This document shows, one piece after another, positions 9,700 through 18,349 of a stretch of DNA of 64,000 nt. Position 1 is the stretch's first letter. The number at the start of each line of letters is the position of its first letter. The position numbers and the translations under genes were made by a program. The DNA comes from Streptomonospora mangrovi (GTDB lineage Bacteria > Actinomycetota > Actinomycetes > Streptosporangiales > Streptosporangiaceae), in NCBI RefSeq assembly GCF_027604915.1, contig NZ_JAJAQC010000029.1, positions 1 to 64,000 on the forward strand, in the 5' to 3' direction. The notes below the pieces were generated by a model, which was given only the letters and a program-made list of their open reading frames with translations, was not told where the DNA came from and did no database searches.

Positions 9700-11079
9700 C
9701 TACCCGGCGCGGTCGGGGCGGAACAGGGAGGTGGGGACCGCCGCCGCCATCGCCGCCATTCCCGCGTCGTTGGGGTGCAGGTGGTCGCCGCTGTCGTAGG
9801 CGGGGCGCAGCCGGAGGGGGTCGGCGGGGTCGCGCATGACGCGGTCGAAGTCGATGACCGTGTCGTACTCCCCGCTGGTGCGGATCCAGTCGTTGACCCG
9901 CTGGCGCTTGGCCTCGTTCTCCGCCGAGTGGAAGCCGAGGGTGTCGCCCTTGAACGGCAGGATGGTGCCGCCGTGGGCGCGCAGCCCGGCGGCGTGCGCG
10001 CGGGCGATGATCTGGCGGTGCGCCCCGATGATCTCCTCGGCGCTGACCTCTTCCGACTCCGGCGCGGAGGTTCCCGGGTGGCCGAGGTCGTTGACCCCCA
10101 GCAGCACGATGACGTGCTCGGCGCCGGGCTGGGCCAGCACGTCGCGGTCGAAGCGGCGCAGCGCGCTCTGCCCGAAGAACGCCGCGTAGCCCTCGGCGTC
10201 GCTGCCCGGGGGCGGGTTGGGGTCGTGCAGCAGCCGGTTGCCGGCCACGCCGAGGTTGAGGACGCCGGTGTGGCGCAGCCGCTCGGCGAGCAGGTCGGGC
10301 CAGCGGTTGTTGGCGTTGACGCGGGTCTCGGCGCCGTCGGTGATGGAGTCGCCCAGGGCCACCACCGCGCCGGCGCCGGGGGTGCGGGTGCGCACGCTGA
10401 CGCCCGAGAGCAGGTGCCACTGCGTCATGGTCGCGGTGGCCTCGACCGACGCGGCGCCGGTGGCGTTGCCCGAGGCGACCACGTTCTCCTGGTAGGAGAA
10501 GGCGTGCAGGGTCGTGACGGGGGTCTCCTCGGGCAGGTAGACGCTGACGACGAGGTCGGCGCGGGGCGGGACGCGGAGGTCGACGGGGTCGCTGAGCAGC
10601 GGTGCGCCGGCGGGCACGGTCACCGAGGTCTGCCCGTTGAAGGTCACCGCGCGGTCGGTGGCGGGGTCGATATCGGTCCCCGAGCCGCCGTCGCGGCGGG
10701 CCACGCGGACCTCGCCGACGCGCAGCGGGGTGTCGCCGAACTCGTTGGTCAGCCGCAGGCGCAACCGGTCGCCGCCGATGCTGGTGCGCACCACTTGGCG
10801 AACCGTCTCGTCGTGGAGCACGGGGGTGGCGGAGGCCGGGGTGGCGGTGGGCACGGTGGCCCAGGTGCCGACCCAGGCGCCGCCGCGCCCGGCGGCGGCG
10901 GGGCTGTCGGCGGTGGGACTGTCGGCGGCGGCGGGGCCGGTGGCGGAACCGGTGGCGACCGCGCCGCCGAGCAGGAGCAGCGCACTCACCAGCACGACGG
11001 CGACGCGCCGCCGCGCGCGGGAGAGGGCGGAAGTGGAGGTGAAGGCGCGGGTGAAGGCATGGGCGGGGGCGGGGGGCAC
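9700..11079 (-). CDS. Secreted SGNH/GDSL-family esterase
   Basis: 459 residues beginning at a GTG with AGGAGG four bases upstream. The N-terminus has an Arg-rich stretch and a hydrophobic segment (VAVVLVSALLLLGGAVA), so it is exported. Residues about 65-230 form a beta-sandwich N-domain; the SGNH hydrolase follows. All four blocks are present: GDSI with nucleophile Ser245, Gly in NLGVAGN, GVND with Asn330, and DHLH with Asp432/His435. Only 25 bases separate it from the upstream deacetylase gene, so the two form an operon behind the 11855-11874 operator. In this xylan context a role removing acetyl or other ester side groups is a reasonable inference, but GDSL enzymes vary widely in substrate. 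Confidence 0.88.
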   Translation of the reverse strand: MPPAPAHAFTRAFTSTSALSRARRRVAVVLVSALLLLGGAVATGSATGPAAADSPTADSPAAAGRGGAWVGTWATVPTATPASATPVLHDETVRQVVRTSIGGDRLRLRLTNEFGDTPLRVGEVRVARRDGGSGTDIDPATDRAVTFNGQTSVTVPAGAPLLSDPVDLRVPPRADLVVSVYLPEETPVTTLHAFSYQENVVASGNATGAASVEATATMTQWHLLSGVSVRTRTPGAGAVVALGDSITDGAETRVNANNRWPDLLAERLRHTGVLNLGVAGNRLLHDPNPPPGSDAEGYAAFFGQSALRRFDRDVLAQPGAEHVIVLLGVNDLGHPGTSAPESEEVSAEEIIGAHRQIIARAHAAGLRAHGGTILPFKGDTLGFHSAENEAKRQRVNDWIRTSGEYDTVIDFDRVMRDPADPLRLRPAYDSGDHLHPNDAGMAAMAAAVPTSLFRPDRAG

Positions 11080-11104: not shown

Positions 11105-11827
11105 TCAGCCGCGCCGGGCGGGACCGGTGAAGTGCCAGCCCTCGGCCCTCAGCCGGGGGATGACCTGGTCCACGGCCTCGACGGTCTGGGACCGGTCGCC
11201 GCCGCCGTCGTGCAGGAGCACCACCGCGCCGGGGGTCGCGCCCTCCTCCAGGCGCCGGACGAGTTCGCCGGTGCCGGGCGGCTCCCAGTCCTCGACCGCC
11301 AGGCGCCAGCCGAGCGGCTGCATGCCCATGTCGGCGGCGACCTGCGGGGTCTGCCCCCAGGCGCCGTAGGGGGCGCGGAAGTAGGGGATGCGGGCGTGGG
11401 GCACGGCGTCGCGGATGGCGGCGTTGGTGGCGCGCAGGTCGGCGCGGATGTCGGCGGCCGACCAGGTGCTCATGTCGTCGTGGCGCATGGTGTGGTTGCA
11501 CAGCGTGTGCCCGGCGCGGGCGATGCGCCGCACCAGGTCGGGGTGTTGGCGGACGTGCTCGCCCCACAGGCAGAAGACGGCCCGGACCCGGTGCTCGCGC
11601 AGGACCTCCAGCAGCCGGGGGGTGTTCCTGGGGTCGGGCCCGTCGTCGAAGGTGAGGGCGAGGGCCTGGCCGCCGCGCGCGGTGGAGTCCACGATGTCGG
11701 GGGTGGCGCCGGTGGGGCCGGAACCGTTGGCCTGAGCGGGCGCCGCGGCACAGAGGGCGAGGGCGACGGTGGAGGCGAGCATGAGCGCGAGCAGTCGTCC
11801 CGGCCCGCGACGGCGAACGGTGGTCAC
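11105..11827 (-). CDS. Secreted polysaccharide deacetylase (CE4/NodB fold), probable acetylxylan esterase
   Basis: 240 residues; GTG start with AGGAG five bases before it. A signal peptide ends near AAPAQA (residue 33). The NodB motifs are in order: TFDDGP with catalytic base Asp61 and metal ligand Asp62, H-x3-H ligands His112 and His116 (CNHTMRHDD), RAPYGAWG, and LLHDGGG with His206. CE4 enzymes remove N- or O-acetyl groups from chitin, peptidoglycan or xylan. First gene of an operon with the SGNH esterase. Its promoter and operator match those of the nearby GH10 xylanase, so acetylxylan is the favoured substrate by inference. Chitin or peptidoglycan remain possible. Confidence 0.88.
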   Translation of the reverse strand: MTTVRRRGPGRLLALMLASTVALALCAAAPAQANGSGPTGATPDIVDSTARGGQALALTFDDGPDPRNTPRLLEVLREHRVRAVFCLWGEHVRQHPDLVRRIARAGHTLCNHTMRHDDMSTWSAADIRADLRATNAAIRDAVPHARIPYFRAPYGAWGQTPQVAADMGMQPLGWRLAVEDWEPPGTGELVRRLEEGATPGAVVLLHDGGGDRSQTVEAVDQVIPRLRAEGWHFTGPARRG

Positions 11828-11854: not shown

Positions 11855-11874
11855 GTTTTCCGGAAGTTTCCGGA
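11855..11874 (-). promoter_or_regulatory. Operator of the deacetylase/esterase operon
   Basis: Read on the minus strand: TCCGGAAACTTCCGGAAAAC. Its core is the inverted repeat CCGGAA-N2-TTCCGG (11860-11873). It matches the xylanase operator (13632-13651) at 17 of 20 positions and has the same orientation to transcription. It begins a few bases after the predicted start point, so a bound repressor would block the polymerase. Confidence 0.85.
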
Positions 11875-11884
11875 ATGTAAGGGC

Positions 11885-11913
11885 AACATAAGGAGACGCT
11901 GGCGCCCTGTCAA
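11885..11913 (-). promoter_or_regulatory. Sigma-70 type promoter of the deacetylase/esterase operon
   Basis: On the minus strand a TTGACA -35 (11908-11913) is separated by 17 bases from a TATGTT -10 (11885-11890). Transcription would start near 11878, just before the operator and about 50 bases before the GTG. Confidence 0.8.
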
Positions 11914-12297
11914 CGGTCCTTCACGGATTCGCGCGGCACAAGGGGAGCATGGCGACCGCAAGGAGGAAGGGAGGGGGTGTGACCCGGCGGCGGGCGAGCG
12001 GCCATCGCACCGCACGACAGTGGTCGAGGTCGGCGACGAGACAGCAGCGGCAGCAGGGGTCCGGGCGGGCGATCACCGGCCCCGCGCCTCGGGGGCCATG
12101 GCCTTCGCCGGAACAGGGCGACAGCCCCCGCCCGGCCTGCCACCAGCCGCACCGCCGACCGGGCCGCCCCCGACGCCACCCGGGCCGTCCGCCCCGCAGC
12201 CCGCTGACCGCGCGACTGGACCCGCGCCTCGGCTCGGCGGACCGTCGCCACCCGTTGGACCAGGGACAATCCGCCCGGGAGGTCGGGGAGAGGGCCG
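11914..12297. other. Intergenic region after the LacI gene
   Basis: Non-coding by eye. It lies between the stop of the LacI gene and the deacetylase promoter. The frames across it are Arg/Pro-rich shadows. I see no further operator copy and no clear terminator. Confidence 0.5.
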
Positions 12298-13350
12298 TCA
12301 GTCCGAAGCGGAGGGCGGTGGAGCCGTGCTGTCGCGGACGACGAGTTCGGTGGCCAGCTCGATGCGCGGGCTCTCGATCGCCTCCCCCCGCATGAGGCGG
12401 TGCACCGTGCGGACCGCCAATCGCCCCATCTCCGCCAGGGGCTGGCGGACCGTGGTCAGCGGCGGCGAGGACCACCGGGCCTCCGGAAGGTCGTCGAACC
12501 CGACCACGCTGACGTCGGCGGGCACCCGCAGTCCTCGGCGGCGCAGGGCCTCGTACACCCCCAGGGTCATCTGGTCGCTGGCGCCGAACACCGCCGTGGG
12601 CGGGTCGGGCAGGGCGAACAGCCGCTCCCCCGCCCGGAAGCCCGACTCGTAGTCGAACTCCCCCTGCATCACCAGCCTGTCGTCCACACTCAGCCCGGCG
12701 GTCTCCAGCCCGGCGCGGTAGCCGTCGAGGCGGGCGCGGCTGGACCACAGCTCCGGCCGCCCGGCCACGAACCCGATGCGGCGGTGGCCCAGCCCCGTCA
12801 GGTGGTTGGTGGCGCTGAGCCCGCCCGCCCAGTTGGTGCAGCCGATGGTGGGCACGGCCAGGTCGGGCACGCCGACGGGGTCGACGACCACCGAGGGCAC
12901 GTGCAGTTCCTCCAACTCCGCCCGCAGCGCGGAGTCCAGGTCCGTCGTGACGAGGATGGCGCCGTCGCTCGCGCGCGAGCGGACGTTGTCGAGCCACTGG
13001 CGGGCGGAGCTGGCCCGGCGGTGGATCGCCGAGACGACGATCCCGCCGCCCGTGCCGTGGGCGGCGTCCTCCACGCCGCGGATGATCTCGACCGCCCACG
13101 GGCTGTCGAGGTCGTTGAAGACGAGGTCGAGCAGCCCCACCCGCGCCTCGGGGCGCGCGCCGACCGCCTCACCGGCCTTGCTGCCGCGCCGCCGGTAGCC
13201 CCGGGCGCGCAGCAGCGACTCGATGCGTTCCCGGGTGGCGGGAGCGACGTCGCCCCGGCCGTTGAGCACGCGCGAGACCGTCGGCGCGGACACGCCCGCT
13301 TCCGCGGCGATGGCGGAGATGGTCACGGCAGGGGTCGGGGTGTCGGGCAC
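12298..13350 (-). CDS. LacI-family transcriptional regulator, probable xylan-utilisation repressor
   Basis: 350 residues from a GTG at 13350 with AAGGAGG four bases upstream; the long frame extending past it lacks ribosome sites. The N-terminal LacI helix-turn-helix is clear (VTISAIAAEAGVSAPTVSRV, residues about 8-28, then LNGRGDVAPATRERI with the hinge). The periplasmic-binding-type effector domain follows, including VFGASDQMTLGVYEALRRRG and VSVVGFDDLPEA. It lies between two transcription units that share the CCGGAA-N2-TTCCGG operator, so it is the natural candidate to bind that site with a xylo-oligosaccharide effector; this is inference. Upstream, CGAGCGCTCG (13379-13388) has the central-CG symmetry typical of LacI sites and may serve autoregulation. 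Confidence 0.9.
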   Translation of the reverse strand: MPDTPTPAVTISAIAAEAGVSAPTVSRVLNGRGDVAPATRERIESLLRARGYRRRGSKAGEAVGARPEARVGLLDLVFNDLDSPWAVEIIRGVEDAAHGTGGGIVVSAIHRRASSARQWLDNVRSRASDGAILVTTDLDSALRAELEELHVPSVVVDPVGVPDLAVPTIGCTNWAGGLSATNHLTGLGHRRIGFVAGRPELWSSRARLDGYRAGLETAGLSVDDRLVMQGEFDYESGFRAGERLFALPDPPTAVFGASDQMTLGVYEALRRRGLRVPADVSVVGFDDLPEARWSSPPLTTVRQPLAEMGRLAVRTVHRLMRGEAIESPRIELATELVVRDSTAPPPSASD

Positions 13351-13378
13351 TGCTCCTCCTTCGTACCTGCCCAGCCTA

Positions 13379-13388
13379 CGAGCGCTCG
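13379..13388. promoter_or_regulatory. Possible LacI-type autoregulatory palindrome
   Basis: Perfect 10-bp palindrome CGAGCGCTCG, 28 bases upstream of the LacI gene start. It shares the GAGCGCTC core of CebR/CelR-type boxes. It is short, so chance is possible at this GC content. Confidence 0.4.
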
Positions 13389-13587
13389 CCCGCCGCGCCA
13401 CCGGTCGGGACCCCTCGGCGGGAAGCGGTGTCGGCGGCCCGAGCCGTGCCGGACCCGGGTCTGGGCACCGCCCATGCCAACGCGCCGGACCGCCGCCAGG
13501 CTCCCGACCGGCGGTATCCCGCACGGTGAGGCCCCGTCCGCGCCCGCCACCGGCGCGCCCCCCGGCGCCTCTGCGCAGGCAGGGGTA

Positions 13588-13616
13588 TTGACGGTCGCCG
13601 GGGCACCGCCTAGTGT
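13588..13616 (+). promoter_or_regulatory. Promoter of the GH10 xylanase gene
   Basis: TTGACG (13588-13593), a 17-base spacer, then TAGTGT (13611-13616). The expected start is near 13623, about 10 bases before the operator. The layout copies that of the deacetylase promoter. Confidence 0.8.
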
Positions 13617-13631
13617 CCAACGTCGCCGTAC

Positions 13632-13651
13632 TCCGGAATTTTCCGGAAATC
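13632..13651 (+). promoter_or_regulatory. Operator of the GH10 xylanase gene
   Basis: TCCGGAATTTTCCGGAAATC contains the inverted repeat CCGGAA-N2-TTCCGG (13633-13646). Same motif, orientation and post-start position as at 11855-11874. Confidence 0.85.
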
Positions 13652-13680
13652 TCCGACGGCCGACCGAATGGGAGTCCCCC

Positions 13681-14838
13681 ATGCAACCCATCCGCTTCGT
13701 CACCGCCGCCCTCGCCACGACCGCCCTGCTCCTGCCGCTGGCGGCGGCCCCGGCCGCCGCCGAGCGGCACCACGGCCACGACGGCCGCCACACCCCGCCC
13801 CACTCCAACGCCAAGTTCGACCGGCTGCGCTGGGCGGCCCCCCAGGACGTCGTCATCGGCACCGCCGTGGCCGGTGGCGGCCACCACCTCGAACAGGACT
13901 ACCCCGACCCCTTCACCTCCGACGGGCGCTACCGCCGTGTCCTCGCCCAGCAGTTCAGCTCGGTCTCCCCCGAGAACCAGATGAAGTGGGAGTACCTGCG
14001 CCCCGAGCGCGACCGCTACGACTTCGCCATGGCCGACCGCATCGTGGACTTCGCCGAGCGCAACGGCCAGGCGGTGCGCGGGCACACGCTGCTGTGGCAC
14101 AGCCAGAACCCCGCCTGGCTGGAGGAGGGCGACTTCACCGACGCCGAACTTCGCGAGATCCTGCACGACCACATCACCACCGTGGTGGGCCGCTACGCCG
14201 GGCGGATCGACCAGTGGGACGTCACCAACGAGATCTTCGACGAGGCGGGCCAACTGCGCACCGAGGAGAACATCTGGCTGCGCGAACTCGGCCCCGGGAT
14301 CATCGCCGACGCGTTCCGCTGGGCGCACGAGGCCGACCCGCACGCCGAACTCTTCCTCAACGACTACGGCGTGGAGGAGGCCAACGCCAAGAGCGACGCC
14401 TACTACGACCTCGCCCAGCAACTCCTGGCCGACGGCGTGCCGCTGCACGGGTTCTCCACCCAGGCCCACCTCAGCCTCGACTACCCGTTCCCGCACGGCC
14501 TGGAGGACAACCTCCGCCGGTTCGACGACCTCGGCCTGGCCACCGCCGTAACCGAGATGGACGTGCGCATGAACGTCCCCGAGAACGGCCGCCCCACCCG
14601 CGCCCAACTCCGCGAGCAGGCCGACTACTACCGCCAGGGACTGTCGGCCTGCCTCGCCGTCGAGGGCTGCGACTCCTTCACCATCTGGGGCTTCACCGAC
14701 AAGTACTCCTGGGTCCCCGTCTTCTTCGAGGGCGAGGGCTCGGCCACGGTGATGACCGACGACTACACCCGCAAGCCCGCCTATTACTCCCTGTGGTCCA
14801 CCCTCAAGCGCGCCAAGTACGACCACGACCGCGAGTGA
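13681..14838 (+). CDS. Secreted GH10 endo-beta-1,4-xylanase
   Basis: 385 residues. A signal peptide (TAALATTALLLPLAAAPAAA) is cleaved near residue 30, then a short His-rich linker leads into one GH10 catalytic domain to the C-terminus. Diagnostic features: FSSVSPENQMKWEYLRPERD, RGHTLLWHSQNPAWL, acid/base Glu184 in WDVTNE, and nucleophile Glu292 in TAVTEMDVRM, followed by FTIWGFTDKYSWVP. There is no carbohydrate-binding module, so this is a minimal xylanase. It cuts internal xylan links outside the cell. The gene is monocistronic, with its own promoter and operator upstream and a hairpin downstream. The ribosome site is weak (GGAG seven bases before the ATG). Confidence 0.95.
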   Translation: MQPIRFVTAALATTALLLPLAAAPAAAERHHGHDGRHTPPHSNAKFDRLRWAAPQDVVIGTAVAGGGHHLEQDYPDPFTSDGRYRRVLAQQFSSVSPENQMKWEYLRPERDRYDFAMADRIVDFAERNGQAVRGHTLLWHSQNPAWLEEGDFTDAELREILHDHITTVVGRYAGRIDQWDVTNEIFDEAGQLRTEENIWLRELGPGIIADAFRWAHEADPHAELFLNDYGVEEANAKSDAYYDLAQQLLADGVPLHGFSTQAHLSLDYPFPHGLEDNLRRFDDLGLATAVTEMDVRMNVPENGRPTRAQLREQADYYRQGLSACLAVEGCDSFTIWGFTDKYSWVPVFFEGEGSATVMTDDYTRKPAYYSLWSTLKRAKYDHDRE

Positions 14839-15431: not shown

Positions 15432-15797
15432 CCTGCCATAACGGGGAGGACGGCGGGCCGGTCGCGGCCCCTCCGGCCTCCCCGCGGGGGCGGCGGTGAC
15501 CCCCACCGCCGCCGTCCCCCCACTGTCGTTCCCGCTCCGCCGTGCCCGGCTTCCGACGCCCGGGCTCCCCCGATGCCCGACTCCCGGGTTCCGACGCCCG
15601 GCTCCCGCTCCCTGCTCCCCGATCCCCGGCGCCTTCCCTGTGCTTGCTGCTACGGGGGCGGGCTTCCCTGCCCGTCTTCCAATGCGGTGGGTGATTGACC
15701 AGCCACCTGGCGCGACCGCGTTCTGATTGACGGTCCCCTTTTGCGCTACAGGCGGTAGATGGTCGCTTACTTAGTTCGATTTTCGTCAAAAGCGGTA
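15432..15797. other. Intergenic region with degenerate C-rich repeats
   Basis: No gene seen. Around 15550-15625 the phrase TTCCGACGCCCGG(G)CTCCC occurs twice, about 40 bases apart, among other CTCCC-rich copies. Similar pyrimidine-rich spacer DNA recurs at 17115-17230. It looks like drifted low-complexity sequence. Confidence 0.5.
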
Positions 15798-15826
15798 TTG
15801 ACTCCCGACACAAGGGCGCGTAGCTT
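15798..15826 (+). promoter_or_regulatory. Promoter upstream of the ROK regulator
   Basis: TTGACT (15798-15803), exactly 17 bases, then TAGCTT (15821-15826). It gives a leader of about 100 bases before the GTG at 15930 and probably drives the whole sugar operon or at least its regulator. Confidence 0.7.
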
Positions 15827-15929
15827 CGTGGCCTGGCTCACAGTGGCGGACCACCCGCCATCGAGGGCCGCCGCACCACCCCCACCACACCCCCGTCGCG
15901 TCCGCGCGCCGACCTCCGCAGGAGCAGCC

Positions 15930-17114
15930 GTGTCCTCTCCGGGCGACATCCTCGACCTCATCAGTCGGGGTGATGCCGGAACCCGCGCCGAACTGGCCCG
16001 GGTCACCGGCATGGCGCGCTCCACGGTCGCCCAGCGCGTGGACACCCTCATCGCCTACGGGCTGGTGGAGGAGCACGAGACCGGCGCGTCCACCGGCGGC
16101 CGGCCGCCCCGGGTGCTGCGCCTGGCCACCGAGCGCAACTGCGTCGTGGGCGTCGACCTCGGCGCCACGCACTGCCGCGTGGCGCTGATGGACATCGGCG
16201 GCCGCCTCCTCGCCGACCGCGAGGACCCCCTGCGCATCACCGAGGGCCCCGAGCCCGTGCTGCGCCACATCGACGACCGCATGCACGAACTCCTCGCCCA
16301 GGCCGGCCGCCCCCTGGCCGCCGTCAAGGCCATCGGGATCGGCGTCCCCGGCCCCGTGGAGTTCGCCACCGGGCGACCGGTCAACCCGCCGATCATGCCC
16401 GGCTGGCACGAGTACCCCATCCCCGACTACTTCACCAGCCGCTACGACCTGGAAGTCCTGGTCGACAACGACGTCAACGCGCTGGCCCTGGGCGAGGTCC
16501 GCCACGGCAGCACCGCCGCCGACAACCTGCTGTTCGTCAAGATCGGCACCGGCATCGGCTGCGGCATCATCGCCGGCGGCCGGCTGCACCGGGGCGCCCA
16601 GGGCGCGGCCGGCGACATCGGCCACATCCGGGTGCCCGGCGCCGACTCCGCCGCCTGCCGCTGCGGCAACACCGGCTGCCTGGAGGCGGTGGCCGGCGGC
16701 GCCGCCCTGGCCGCGCGGCTCACCCAGGCGGGCGTGCCCGCCGCCGACGGCCGGGCCGTGGTGGACCTGGTCAGCAGCGGCGACCCGATGGCCGTGCGCC
16801 TGGTGCGCGAGGCCGGCCGCGACATCGGCGACGTCCTCGCCGGGCTCGTCAACTTCTTCAACCCCGAGGCGATCGTGGTGGGCGGGGTCATGGCCGCCGC
16901 CCACGAGCACCTGCTGGCGGGGGTGCGCGAGGTCATCTACCAGCGCTCCCTGCCGCTGGCCACCCACCGGCTCACCGTCGCGCCCACCGAGGCCGGCGAG
17001 GCCGGGGGCGCGCTGGGCGCCGGGCGCCTGGCCATCGACCACGTCCTGGCCCCCGACAACATCGACCGGGCACTGGCCGCGCACGCGGCCGGCGCCGCAC
17101 CGGCGGCGCGGTAG
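15930..17114 (+). CDS. ROK-family transcriptional regulator of the sugar operon
   Basis: 394 residues from a GTG with AGGAG five bases upstream. Residues about 1-70 are a winged helix-turn-helix (GTRAELARVTGMARSTVAQR, then VDTLIAYGLVEE). The ROK sugar-kinase-like domain follows, with DLGATHCRVALMDIGG as phosphate loop, IGTGIGCGIIAGGRLHRG, and the zinc-binding CRCGNTGCLEA. This is the NagC/Mlc/XylR layout: a repressor that responds to a sugar or sugar phosphate. The binding-protein gene starts 140 bases downstream on the same strand, so it most likely controls the importer that follows. The sugar cannot be named from sequence. Confidence 0.9.
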   Translation: MSSPGDILDLISRGDAGTRAELARVTGMARSTVAQRVDTLIAYGLVEEHETGASTGGRPPRVLRLATERNCVVGVDLGATHCRVALMDIGGRLLADREDPLRITEGPEPVLRHIDDRMHELLAQAGRPLAAVKAIGIGVPGPVEFATGRPVNPPIMPGWHEYPIPDYFTSRYDLEVLVDNDVNALALGEVRHGSTAADNLLFVKIGTGIGCGIIAGGRLHRGAQGAAGDIGHIRVPGADSAACRCGNTGCLEAVAGGAALAARLTQAGVPAADGRAVVDLVSSGDPMAVRLVREAGRDIGDVLAGLVNFFNPEAIVVGGVMAAAHEHLLAGVREVIYQRSLPLATHRLTVAPTEAGEAGGALGAGRLAIDHVLAPDNIDRALAAHAAGAAPAAR

Positions 17115-17254
17115 CGGACCCCCGCTCCCGCCCCGACCCCCTCCCCGACTCCCGACTCCCGACCCCATCCCCCGAAGCCGCACCTTCCCGGATCCCCCCG
17201 ATCCCCCGACCCCGCTATCCCCCCATCCCGTCCGAAGTACATGGAGGCCCCACG

Positions 17255-18349
17255 ATGGGTTCGATTCCGCAATGGCGCACCCGCAGGCACGCGTTCGGCG
17301 CGCTGGCGGCGGCCGGCGTGGTGCTCGCCGCGACCGCGTGCAGCACCCCCGAGGCCGGCGGCGGCGACGGCGGTGAGGGGGCGTCCGACGGCCCCTTCAC
17401 CATCGGCGTCAGCAACGGCTTCATCGGCAGCGAGTGGCGCGAGCAGATGCTCTCCGTCCTTGAGGACGCCTTCGCCGAGTACGAGAGCGAGGGCGTCGTG
17501 GACGAACTCGTCGTGGAGAGCGCCGACGTCGACGTCAACGGCCAGATCCAGCAGATCCGCAACCTGATCCGCTCCGACGTCGACGCCATCATCGTCAACC
17601 CCAACTCCCCCACGGCGCTGGACGAGGTGTTCGCCGAGGCCGCCGACCAGGGCATCCAGATCGTCGCCATCGACCAGGCCGTGGAGTCCGAGCACGTCAC
17701 CAACGTGGTCATCGACCAGGCGGAGTGGGCGTCGATCTCGGCGGAGTGGCTGGCCGAGGAGGTCGGCGAGGGCGGCGAGATCATCGCGGTCAACGGCATC
17801 GACGGCCACCCCGCCAACGAGGACCGCTGGTCGGGCGCCCAGCAGGTGTTCGAGGAGGCCGGCGTGGAGGTTGTGGCCAACGACTTCGCCGAGTGGGACC
17901 AGAGCCAGGGCCAGACCGTCACCCGCGACCTGCTCTCCAGCAACCCCGACGTCGACGGGATCTTCGTCCAGGACGGCATGGCCCTGGGCGCCATGCAGGC
18001 CCTCCAGGCCGAGGGCCTGGAGGACGAGGTCGCCATCACCGGCGAGGCGCGCGTGGGCTACATGAAGGAATGGGACCAACTGCGCCAGGACAACGAGGAC
18101 TTCTCCAGCATCGGCGTGCCCAACCCGCCCTCGGTGTCGGTGTCGGCGCTGCACGTCGTGGTCCGCATGCTCCAGGGCCAGGAGTTCCGCTCCGACGCCC
18201 TCGACGGCAACACGCTCTACCTGCCGATGCCCGAGACGGTCACCGACGAGAACTTCGACGAGCGCTTCGCCGAGGTCGAGGACGAGCCCGACGCCTACGC
18301 CGTCGACCACAGCATCACCCCCGAGGAAGCCGACTCCTACTTCCAGTAG
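17255..18349 (+). CDS. Sugar ABC transporter substrate-binding lipoprotein (RbsB/XylF class)
   Basis: 364 residues with GGAGG seven bases before the ATG. The lipobox VLAATACS predicts acylation at about Cys29, so the mature protein is tethered to the outer face of the membrane. The type-I periplasmic-binding fold follows (FTIGVSNGFIGSEWREQM, then VDAIIVNPNSPTALDEV, then IVAIDQAVE), as in ribose/xylose/inositol binders. First structural gene of the importer, 92 bases before the ATPase. The ligand is likely a monosaccharide or cyclitol, given the transporter class and the downstream dehydrogenase. Confidence 0.92.
   Translation: MGSIPQWRTRRHAFGALAAAGVVLAATACSTPEAGGGDGGEGASDGPFTIGVSNGFIGSEWREQMLSVLEDAFAEYESEGVVDELVVESADVDVNGQIQQIRNLIRSDVDAIIVNPNSPTALDEVFAEAADQGIQIVAIDQAVESEHVTNVVIDQAEWASISAEWLAEEVGEGGEIIAVNGIDGHPANEDRWSGAQQVFEEAGVEVVANDFAEWDQSQGQTVTRDLLSSNPDVDGIFVQDGMALGAMQALQAEGLEDEVAITGEARVGYMKEWDQLRQDNEDFSSIGVPNPPSVSVSALHVVVRMLQGQEFRSDALDGNTLYLPMPETVTDENFDERFAEVEDEPDAYAVDHSITPEEADSYFQ

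What the first reader, a model, noticed from the sequence alone, without database searches (positions are those of the whole stretch)
11855..13651. Matched promoter-operator modules define a xylan regulon around one LacI gene
Two units, the deacetylase/SGNH operon (minus) and the GH10 xylanase (plus), each have a strong -35/-10 pair with a 17-base spacer and then, within about 10 bases of the start point, a 20-bp operator with the core CCGGAA-N2-TTCCGG. The two sites agree at 17 of 20 positions in the same orientation to transcription. A LacI regulator lies between them. Known streptomycete xylanase operators (CGAA/TTTC-type) differ, so this looks like a distinct site class. It also links two esterases to xylanase control.
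Basis: partly seen in the sequence, partly recalled or inferred. Interest (0 to 1): 0.72.

Follow-up and report, generated by a model that had tools for sequence, protein, structure and literature searches.

The report
LacI switch for xylan-degrading enzymes
A regulator gene sits between two enzyme units for breaking down the plant polymer xylan, and a matching DNA docking site, kept at fixed positions beside their promoters in related bacteria, very probably lets that regulator control these enzymes together.

Summary
Confirmed and extended. The two CCGGAA-N2-TTCCGG sites are the only exact copies in the 6.36 Mb assembly, agree at 17 of 20 positions and start 8 and 13 nt after the -10 box. 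LacI, GH10 and CE4 genes, often with SGNH, stay together in Streptomonospora, Thermobifida and other genera. Of 42 upstream regions that I chose, 33 have the 20-bp site within 3 mismatches and 39 within 4, against 0 of 2100 shuffles. The site also precedes an unlinked GH11 xylanase here and 14 of 17 GH11 genes in genomes with the regulator, against 0 of 28 in genomes without it, at 3 mismatches (at 4: 15 of 17 against 5 of 28).

So this is a xylan regulon supported by comparison. The operator is a variant of the published BxlR site (CGAAACTTTCG); which residues cause the difference is unknown, since an Arg/Lys difference in the recognition helix does not predict site type. The subfamily lacks the usual hinge-helix motif (0 of 107 loci; 18 of 18 other LacI loci tested have it). 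Binding, effector and direction of control are untested.

The parts
9700..11079 (-). SGNH/GDSL esterase, second gene of the deacetylase unit
   Evidence: PF13472 4.8e-27; best solved matches are SGNH hydrolases (8.8e-86), with a weaker partial match to 7tok 'Acetylxylan esterase I' (5.2e-12)
11105..11827 (-). CE4 polysaccharide deacetylase (xylan substrate inferred), first gene of the unit
   Evidence: PF01522 6.2e-35; best solved match is a peptidoglycan deacetylase (2.2e-28), acetyl-xylan esterase 2cc0 at 4.1e-18
11857..11876 (-). operator 1, ATTCCGGAAACTTCCGGAAA, starting 8 nt after the -10
11885..11890 (-). -10 box TATGTT of the deacetylase unit
11908..11913 (-). -35 box TTGACA of the deacetylase unit (17-nt spacer)
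12298..13350 (-). LacI-family regulator (350 aa, GTG start), recognition helix SAPTVSRV, no usual hinge-helix motif
   Evidence: PF00356, PF13377
13588..13593 (+). -35 box TTGACG of the GH10 xylanase
13611..13616 (+). -10 box TAGTGT of the GH10 xylanase (17-nt spacer)
13630..13649 (+). operator 2, ACTCCGGAATTTTCCGGAAA, starting 13 nt after the -10
13643..13656 (+). overlapping weaker copy (2 mismatches), shifted by 10 bp
13681..14838 (+). GH10 endo-xylanase
   Evidence: PF00331 3.1e-91

Best explanation
The LacI protein encoded at 12298-13350 is a local repressor of secreted xylan-degrading enzymes. As a dimer it binds the near-palindrome TTCCGGAA-N2-TTCCGGAA. At the GH10 and CE4-SGNH promoters the site lies over the first transcribed bases, so a bound repressor would block initiation or early elongation. 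At the unlinked GH11 promoter the site abuts the -35 box. A xylan breakdown product such as xylobiose would release it. Shown here: site identity, fixed promoter phasing, gene linkage, co-occurrence of site and regulator, extension to GH11 in trans. Inferred: binding by this protein, transcription start points, repression rather than activation, the effector.
For: The only two exact sites of the assembly flank this gene. Of 42 GH10/CE4/SGNH upstream regions beside the regulator, 33 have a site within 3 mismatches and 39 within 4; 0 of 2100 shuffled regions reach 4. Six positions (G6, A8, A9, T12, C15, G16) are invariant in those 39, which were selected by match. Phasing, given for 30 of the 42: sites start 8 nt after the -10 in 12 of 13 CE4 genes (6 nt in L145) and 11-13 nt after it in 17 of 17 GH10 genes. 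GH11: 14 of 17 genes within 3 mismatches in 14 genomes with the regulator, 0 of 28 without it, Mann-Whitney p = 2.1e-7; leaving out the own-genome gene, where the link was first seen, it is 13 of 16. In G004 a site precedes a GH62 arabinofuranosidase with lectin domain; G001 has the same site and a similar protein start. In Pseudarthrobacter (L145) a BxlR-like paralogue lies by CGAAAGTTTCG and this regulator by CCGGAAGTTTCCGG. Nearest solved full-length relative is a CelR-cellobiose complex, 5ysz. For the cousin: BxlR is called xylobiose-responsive, and deleting bxlR raised a reporter by up to 70% without full derepression (PMC4743123, passages).
Against: No binding or expression data. The counts treat related genomes as independent. 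At 4 mismatches 5 of 28 GH11 genes without the regulator also match, some as related palindromes. Misses: both GH11 genes of G064 and the second of G001; L077 first CE4, L080 GH10, L149 GH10. Of 65 other loci with the same branch of regulator, only 5 hold an even CGGAA-N2-TTCCG site, and 7 hold the CGAAA-N-TTTCG type, so the site variant belongs to the GH10-linked group and is not predicted by the Arg in the helix. The GH11 operator lies upstream of the -35 box, which also suits activation. One further extended match in the own genome (C16) has no obvious xylan gene. The genome has 17 LacI matches at E <= 0.001.
Confidence: 0.86

Rival explanations
1. The sites are bound mainly by the BxlR-like paralogue encoded beside a sugar transporter and GH3 gene (G000:C15), and the linked LacI gene does something else.
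For: The paralogue is 54% identical and lies by a sugar-binding protein, a permease and a GH3 gene. Half-sites are similar and GH11 sites often mix a CCGAAA and a CCGGAA half. The Arg/Lys helix difference does not predict site type.
Against: The paralogue's divergent intergenic region holds another conserved element, TATCGAAACTATCGGA, in the 6 genomes aligned, and L051 and L052 hold no CCGGAANNTTCCGG within 2 mismatches. In Pseudarthrobacter each paralogue lies by its own site type. The site co-occurs with the linked gene.
Confidence: 0.08
2. The sites belong to a general or global feature unrelated to xylan.
For: 301 matches per strand exist in the genome at up to 2 mismatches to the 14-mer, against 181 for the reversed control.
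Against: At up to 3 mismatches to the 20-mer the own genome has 4 places, before CE4, GH10 and GH11 and one unexplained, with 0 for the control. 0 of 28 GH11 genes without the regulator have a site at that level.
Confidence: 0.03
3. The protein is an activator or dual regulator rather than a repressor.
For: At GH11 the TTCCGGAA lies 4-5 nt upstream of TTGAC in all 17 promoters.
Against: At GH10 and CE4 the site lies downstream of the -10 box, which fits blocking. Most LacI-type sugar regulators are repressors (recalled).
Confidence: 0.05

Closest known systems
BxlR of Streptomyces (S. thermoviolaceus; S. lividans SLI7232; SirexAA-E SACTE_0535)
   Same: LacI family, linked to xylanase and xylobiose genes; operator with a related half-site: CGAAACTTTCG (PMC4743123, passages), CGAANNTTTCG upstream of GH10 and GH11 xylanases (PMC12772271, passages).
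   Different: This gene lies beside GH10 and CE4/SGNH, not bxlEFG; operator half TTCCGG with 2-bp centre instead of TTTCG with 1-bp centre.
CelR/CebR of Thermobifida and Streptomyces
   Same: LacI-family regulator of secreted plant cell-wall hydrolases; 5ysz (CelR) is the nearest solved full-length structure.
   Different: CebR binds TGGGAGCGCTCCCA, with central CG (PMC4898821, passages); CelR controls cellulases in T. fusca (PMC3377646, passages).
Sites found in Catenulispora and Actinospica
   Same: GAAA-N-TTTC palindromes upstream of cellulase and some xylanase genes (PMC3377646, passages).
   Different: Odd centre and mostly A where this site has G; no regulator named in the passages seen.

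Membership tests
LacI/GalR transcription factors | N-terminal LacI helix-turn-helix and C-terminal sugar-binding domain | tested here: met
   PF00356 6.2e-12 at 10-53; PF13377 2.5e-44 at 182-342; predicted fold matches LacI-family structures
LacI/GalR transcription factors | Hinge-helix motif of the YxPNxxAxxL type between the domains (recalled; usual, not strictly defining) | tested here: not met
   My pattern: 0 of 107 loci of this subfamily (at least 3 are the same genes from two collections) against 18 of 18 other LacI loci held from the genus. Model: no helix between residues 49 and 73, pLDDT under 50 at 54-68; a monomer model cannot exclude a helix that forms on DNA.
LacI/GalR transcription factors | Even palindrome with central CG (1173 of 1303 regulators, PMC4052901 section 9; usual, not defining) | tested here: not met
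   0 of 39 GH10/CE4/SGNH sites and 1 of 14 GH11 sites have central CG. A dyad centred inside TTCCGGAA, which would have CG, is not excluded.
BxlR | Gene beside bxlEFG and a GH3 beta-xylosidase | tested here: not met
   Neighbours are GH10 and CE4/SGNH; a paralogue at G000:C15 holds such a position
BxlR | Operator CGAAANTTTCG | tested here: not met
   The one exact copy in the own genome is at C30:126668, away from this locus
BxlR | Sequence orthology and xylobiose-responsive binding | not testable with these tools
   published BxlR sequences not held; needs purified protein
XlnR of S. lividans | Sequence orthology | not tested

The most novel reading that the evidence does not exclude
A large actinobacterial subfamily of LacI regulators (this protein, its BxlR-like paralogues and relatives) lacks the hinge helix that classic LacI proteins insert at a central CG, and so reads operators with an unconstrained centre by a different binding and induction mode; within it, a GH10-linked clade evolved its own operator code, CCGGAA-N2-TTCCGG, beside the CGAAA-N-TTTCG code of its cousins.
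Probability: 0.4. Interest if true: 0.65.

Novelty: new variant of a known kind. Interest (0 to 1): 0.52.

Why it matters
It gives a testable operator and regulon for secreted xylanases and putative xylan esterases in Streptomonospora, Thermobifida and related genera. It links a CE4 and an SGNH enzyme to xylan use through co-regulation. It also offers natural sets of related LacI proteins with different operators, and a subfamily that may work without a hinge helix, for studying DNA recognition and induction.

Tried and rejected
Loose scans were set aside: 2 mismatches in the window and in the genome. Of the 14 one-mismatch places in the own genome listed, five were read by eye for neighbouring genes (C16, C50, C64 directly; C18 and C29 through overlapping loci L094, L097) and none showed an obvious xylan gene; nine were not read. 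The ten other extended matches L093-L102 also showed none by eye.

An Arg/Lys code in the recognition helix was considered as cause of the operator difference and dropped: all 80 loci carry Arg, yet 7 of the 65 outside the GH10-linked group hold CGAAA-N-TTTCG sites.

A dyad centred on the CG inside TTCCGGAA was considered. Symmetric conservation about the N2 centre and the BxlR precedent favour the N2 centre; not proven.

Papers: searches listed no paper whose title or abstract start shows this site or a xylan LacI regulator of Thermobifida. Listings were capped (15 of 83; 10 of 62,699), most hits were not opened, and only open-licence PubMed Central is covered., and passages of PMC4961497, gave no statement about LacI proteins without the hinge motif. 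PMC10766802 was seen as passages.

Dropped rows: one search used 17 of 18 GH11 rows (L120, a second piece of the L115 gene, left out); of 32 rows, 30 had loci, 28 were scored and 2 had no anchor (L241, L242). 80 of the 130 family genomes without a hit at 1e-110 were searched. One search was a first try that failed on its anchor. The 42 regions were my choice, from loci with GH10-linked regulators; duplicates of G001, G005 and G044 and distant CE4 genes of Arthrobacter and Geodermatophilus loci were left out. One search kept the best 80 of 573 relatives.

Full report
The two CCGGAA-N2-TTCCGG sites lie at 11860-11873 and 13633-13646 and are the only exact copies in the 6.36 Mb assembly; the reversed control has none. 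As 20-mers in the direction of transcription they agree at 17 of 20 positions. Each follows a TTGAC-type promoter with a 17-nt spacer and starts 8 nt (deacetylase) or 13 nt (xylanase) after the -10 box. The genes are CE4, SGNH, LacI and GH10. The CE4 protein is closer to solved peptidoglycan deacetylases than to acetyl-xylan esterase, and reaches no NCBIfam cut-off, so its xylan role is inferred.

Relatives. The LacI orthologue is in 6 of 6 genomes of the genus, at 87-96% in the other five; 20 of 150 family genomes have a match at E <= 1e-110, some of them more distant paralogues. In all six same-genus genomes the gene lies between GH10 and CE4-SGNH with a site within 1 mismatch of the 14-mer before each unit. 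In six further family genomes GH10, LacI and CE4 are together with sites, SGNH being found only in L075. G115 has GH10 beside LacI without a good site; its contig ends nearby. GH10-linked loci also occur in Nocardiopsis, Actinokineospora, Prauserella, Pseudarthrobacter, Arthrobacter and Geodermatophilaceae.

Site counts. Of 42 GH10/CE4/SGNH upstream regions that I chose, 33 have TTTCCGGAANNTTCCGGAAA within 3 mismatches and 39 within 4; none of 2100 shuffles (50 for each region) reaches 4. Misses are the first CE4 of L077, GH10 of L080 and GH10 of L149. Phasing was read for 30 of the 42: 8 nt after the -10 in 12 of 13 CE4 genes (6 nt in L145), 11-13 nt in 17 of 17 GH10 genes.

In trans. The next best extended match in the own genome (C73) lies 85 nt before a GH11 xylanase (PF00457, 1.7e-81). 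GH11 is in 14 of 14 genomes searched with the regulator. 14 of 17 genes, in 13 of 14 genomes, have a site within 3 mismatches; misses are both genes of G064 (regulator 65-66% identical) and the second of G001, where the spacer is 1 bp longer. Of 80 genomes without the regulator at the cut used, 25 have GH11, and 0 of 28 genes scored have a site within 3; at 4 the numbers are 15 of 17 and 5 of 28. The own GH11 gene was the discovery, so the independent part is 13 of 16. In all 17 promoters TTCCGGAA lies 4-5 nt before TTGAC, also in the three misses; 10 of 17 have a CCGAAANNTTTCGG-type palindrome within 2 mismatches 101-153 bp further up, for which no control was run. A GH62 gene of G004 has the site, and G001 has the same site before a similar protein start.

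Regulator and cousins. The closest paralogue in the genome (54%) lies beside a sugar-binding protein, a permease and GH3, the BxlR arrangement. Recognition helices read SAPTVSRV here and SVPTVSKV there. On a tree of 64 proteins the Lys rows and the Arg rows fall on two sides of one branch (94/75, below the tool's star level), and the GH10-linked regulators form one starred clade of 24 rows (100/99). The helix does not predict the site: in the 15 GH10-linked named loci 11 hold an even CGGAA-N2-TTCCG site, while among 65 other Arg-type loci 5 do and 7 hold CGAAA-N-TTTCG. Some Streptomyces Arg-type regulators lie by transporter and GH3 genes (L177, L178, L181, L188), with other arrangements of TTCCGG nearby. 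The published BxlR may belong to either group; it was not compared. So the operator variant is a feature of the GH10-linked clade, and its cause in the protein is unknown.

Hinge. None of 107 loci of this subfamily matches my hinge pattern, while 18 of 18 other LacI loci held from the genus do; the model has no helix between residues 49 and 73. Central CG occurs in 0 of 39 and 1 of 14 sites, against 1173 of 1303 regulators in a survey (PMC4052901, section 9 read). That the two facts are linked is inference. Hinge pattern and E. coli LacI roles are recalled.

Conclusion. A repressor with its own operator variant controlling secreted xylanases and co-transcribed esterases is the best reading. 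Binding, effector and sign of control are not shown.

Noticed in passing
window 15759-18349 and onward: A ROK-family regulator and a CUT2-type sugar-binding protein, with what look like ABC transporter genes after them (ORFs, not scanned), lie downstream of the xylanase; ROK and binding protein are also there in G003. Possibly a pentose uptake unit.
   Followed up: no
L103-L119 upstream regions: 10 of 17 GH11 promoters carry a distal CCGAAANNTTTCGG-type palindrome (within 2 mismatches) 101-153 bp above the proximal site; dual control or looping is possible.
   Followed up: partly
L181, L188, L210, L213 (similar in L177, L199, L207): Streptomyces regulators of the Arg group have spaced TTCCGGAA and CTTCCGG elements upstream, such as CTTCCGGAATAATGTTGAAAAACTTCCGG, suggesting a related but different operator layout.
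   Followed up: partly
L022-L027: The BxlR-like paralogue has a conserved divergent intergenic element, TATCGAAACTATCGGA, in 6 genomes of the genus.
   Followed up: no
L089:5269: G005 has an exact site between a sugar ABC transporter operon and a Gfo/Idh/MocA oxidoreductase gene.
   Followed up: partly
window 13631-13657; L077, L079: Some operators continue as a third TTCCGGAA-like octamer in 10-bp step, so overlapping binding sites are possible.
   Followed up: no
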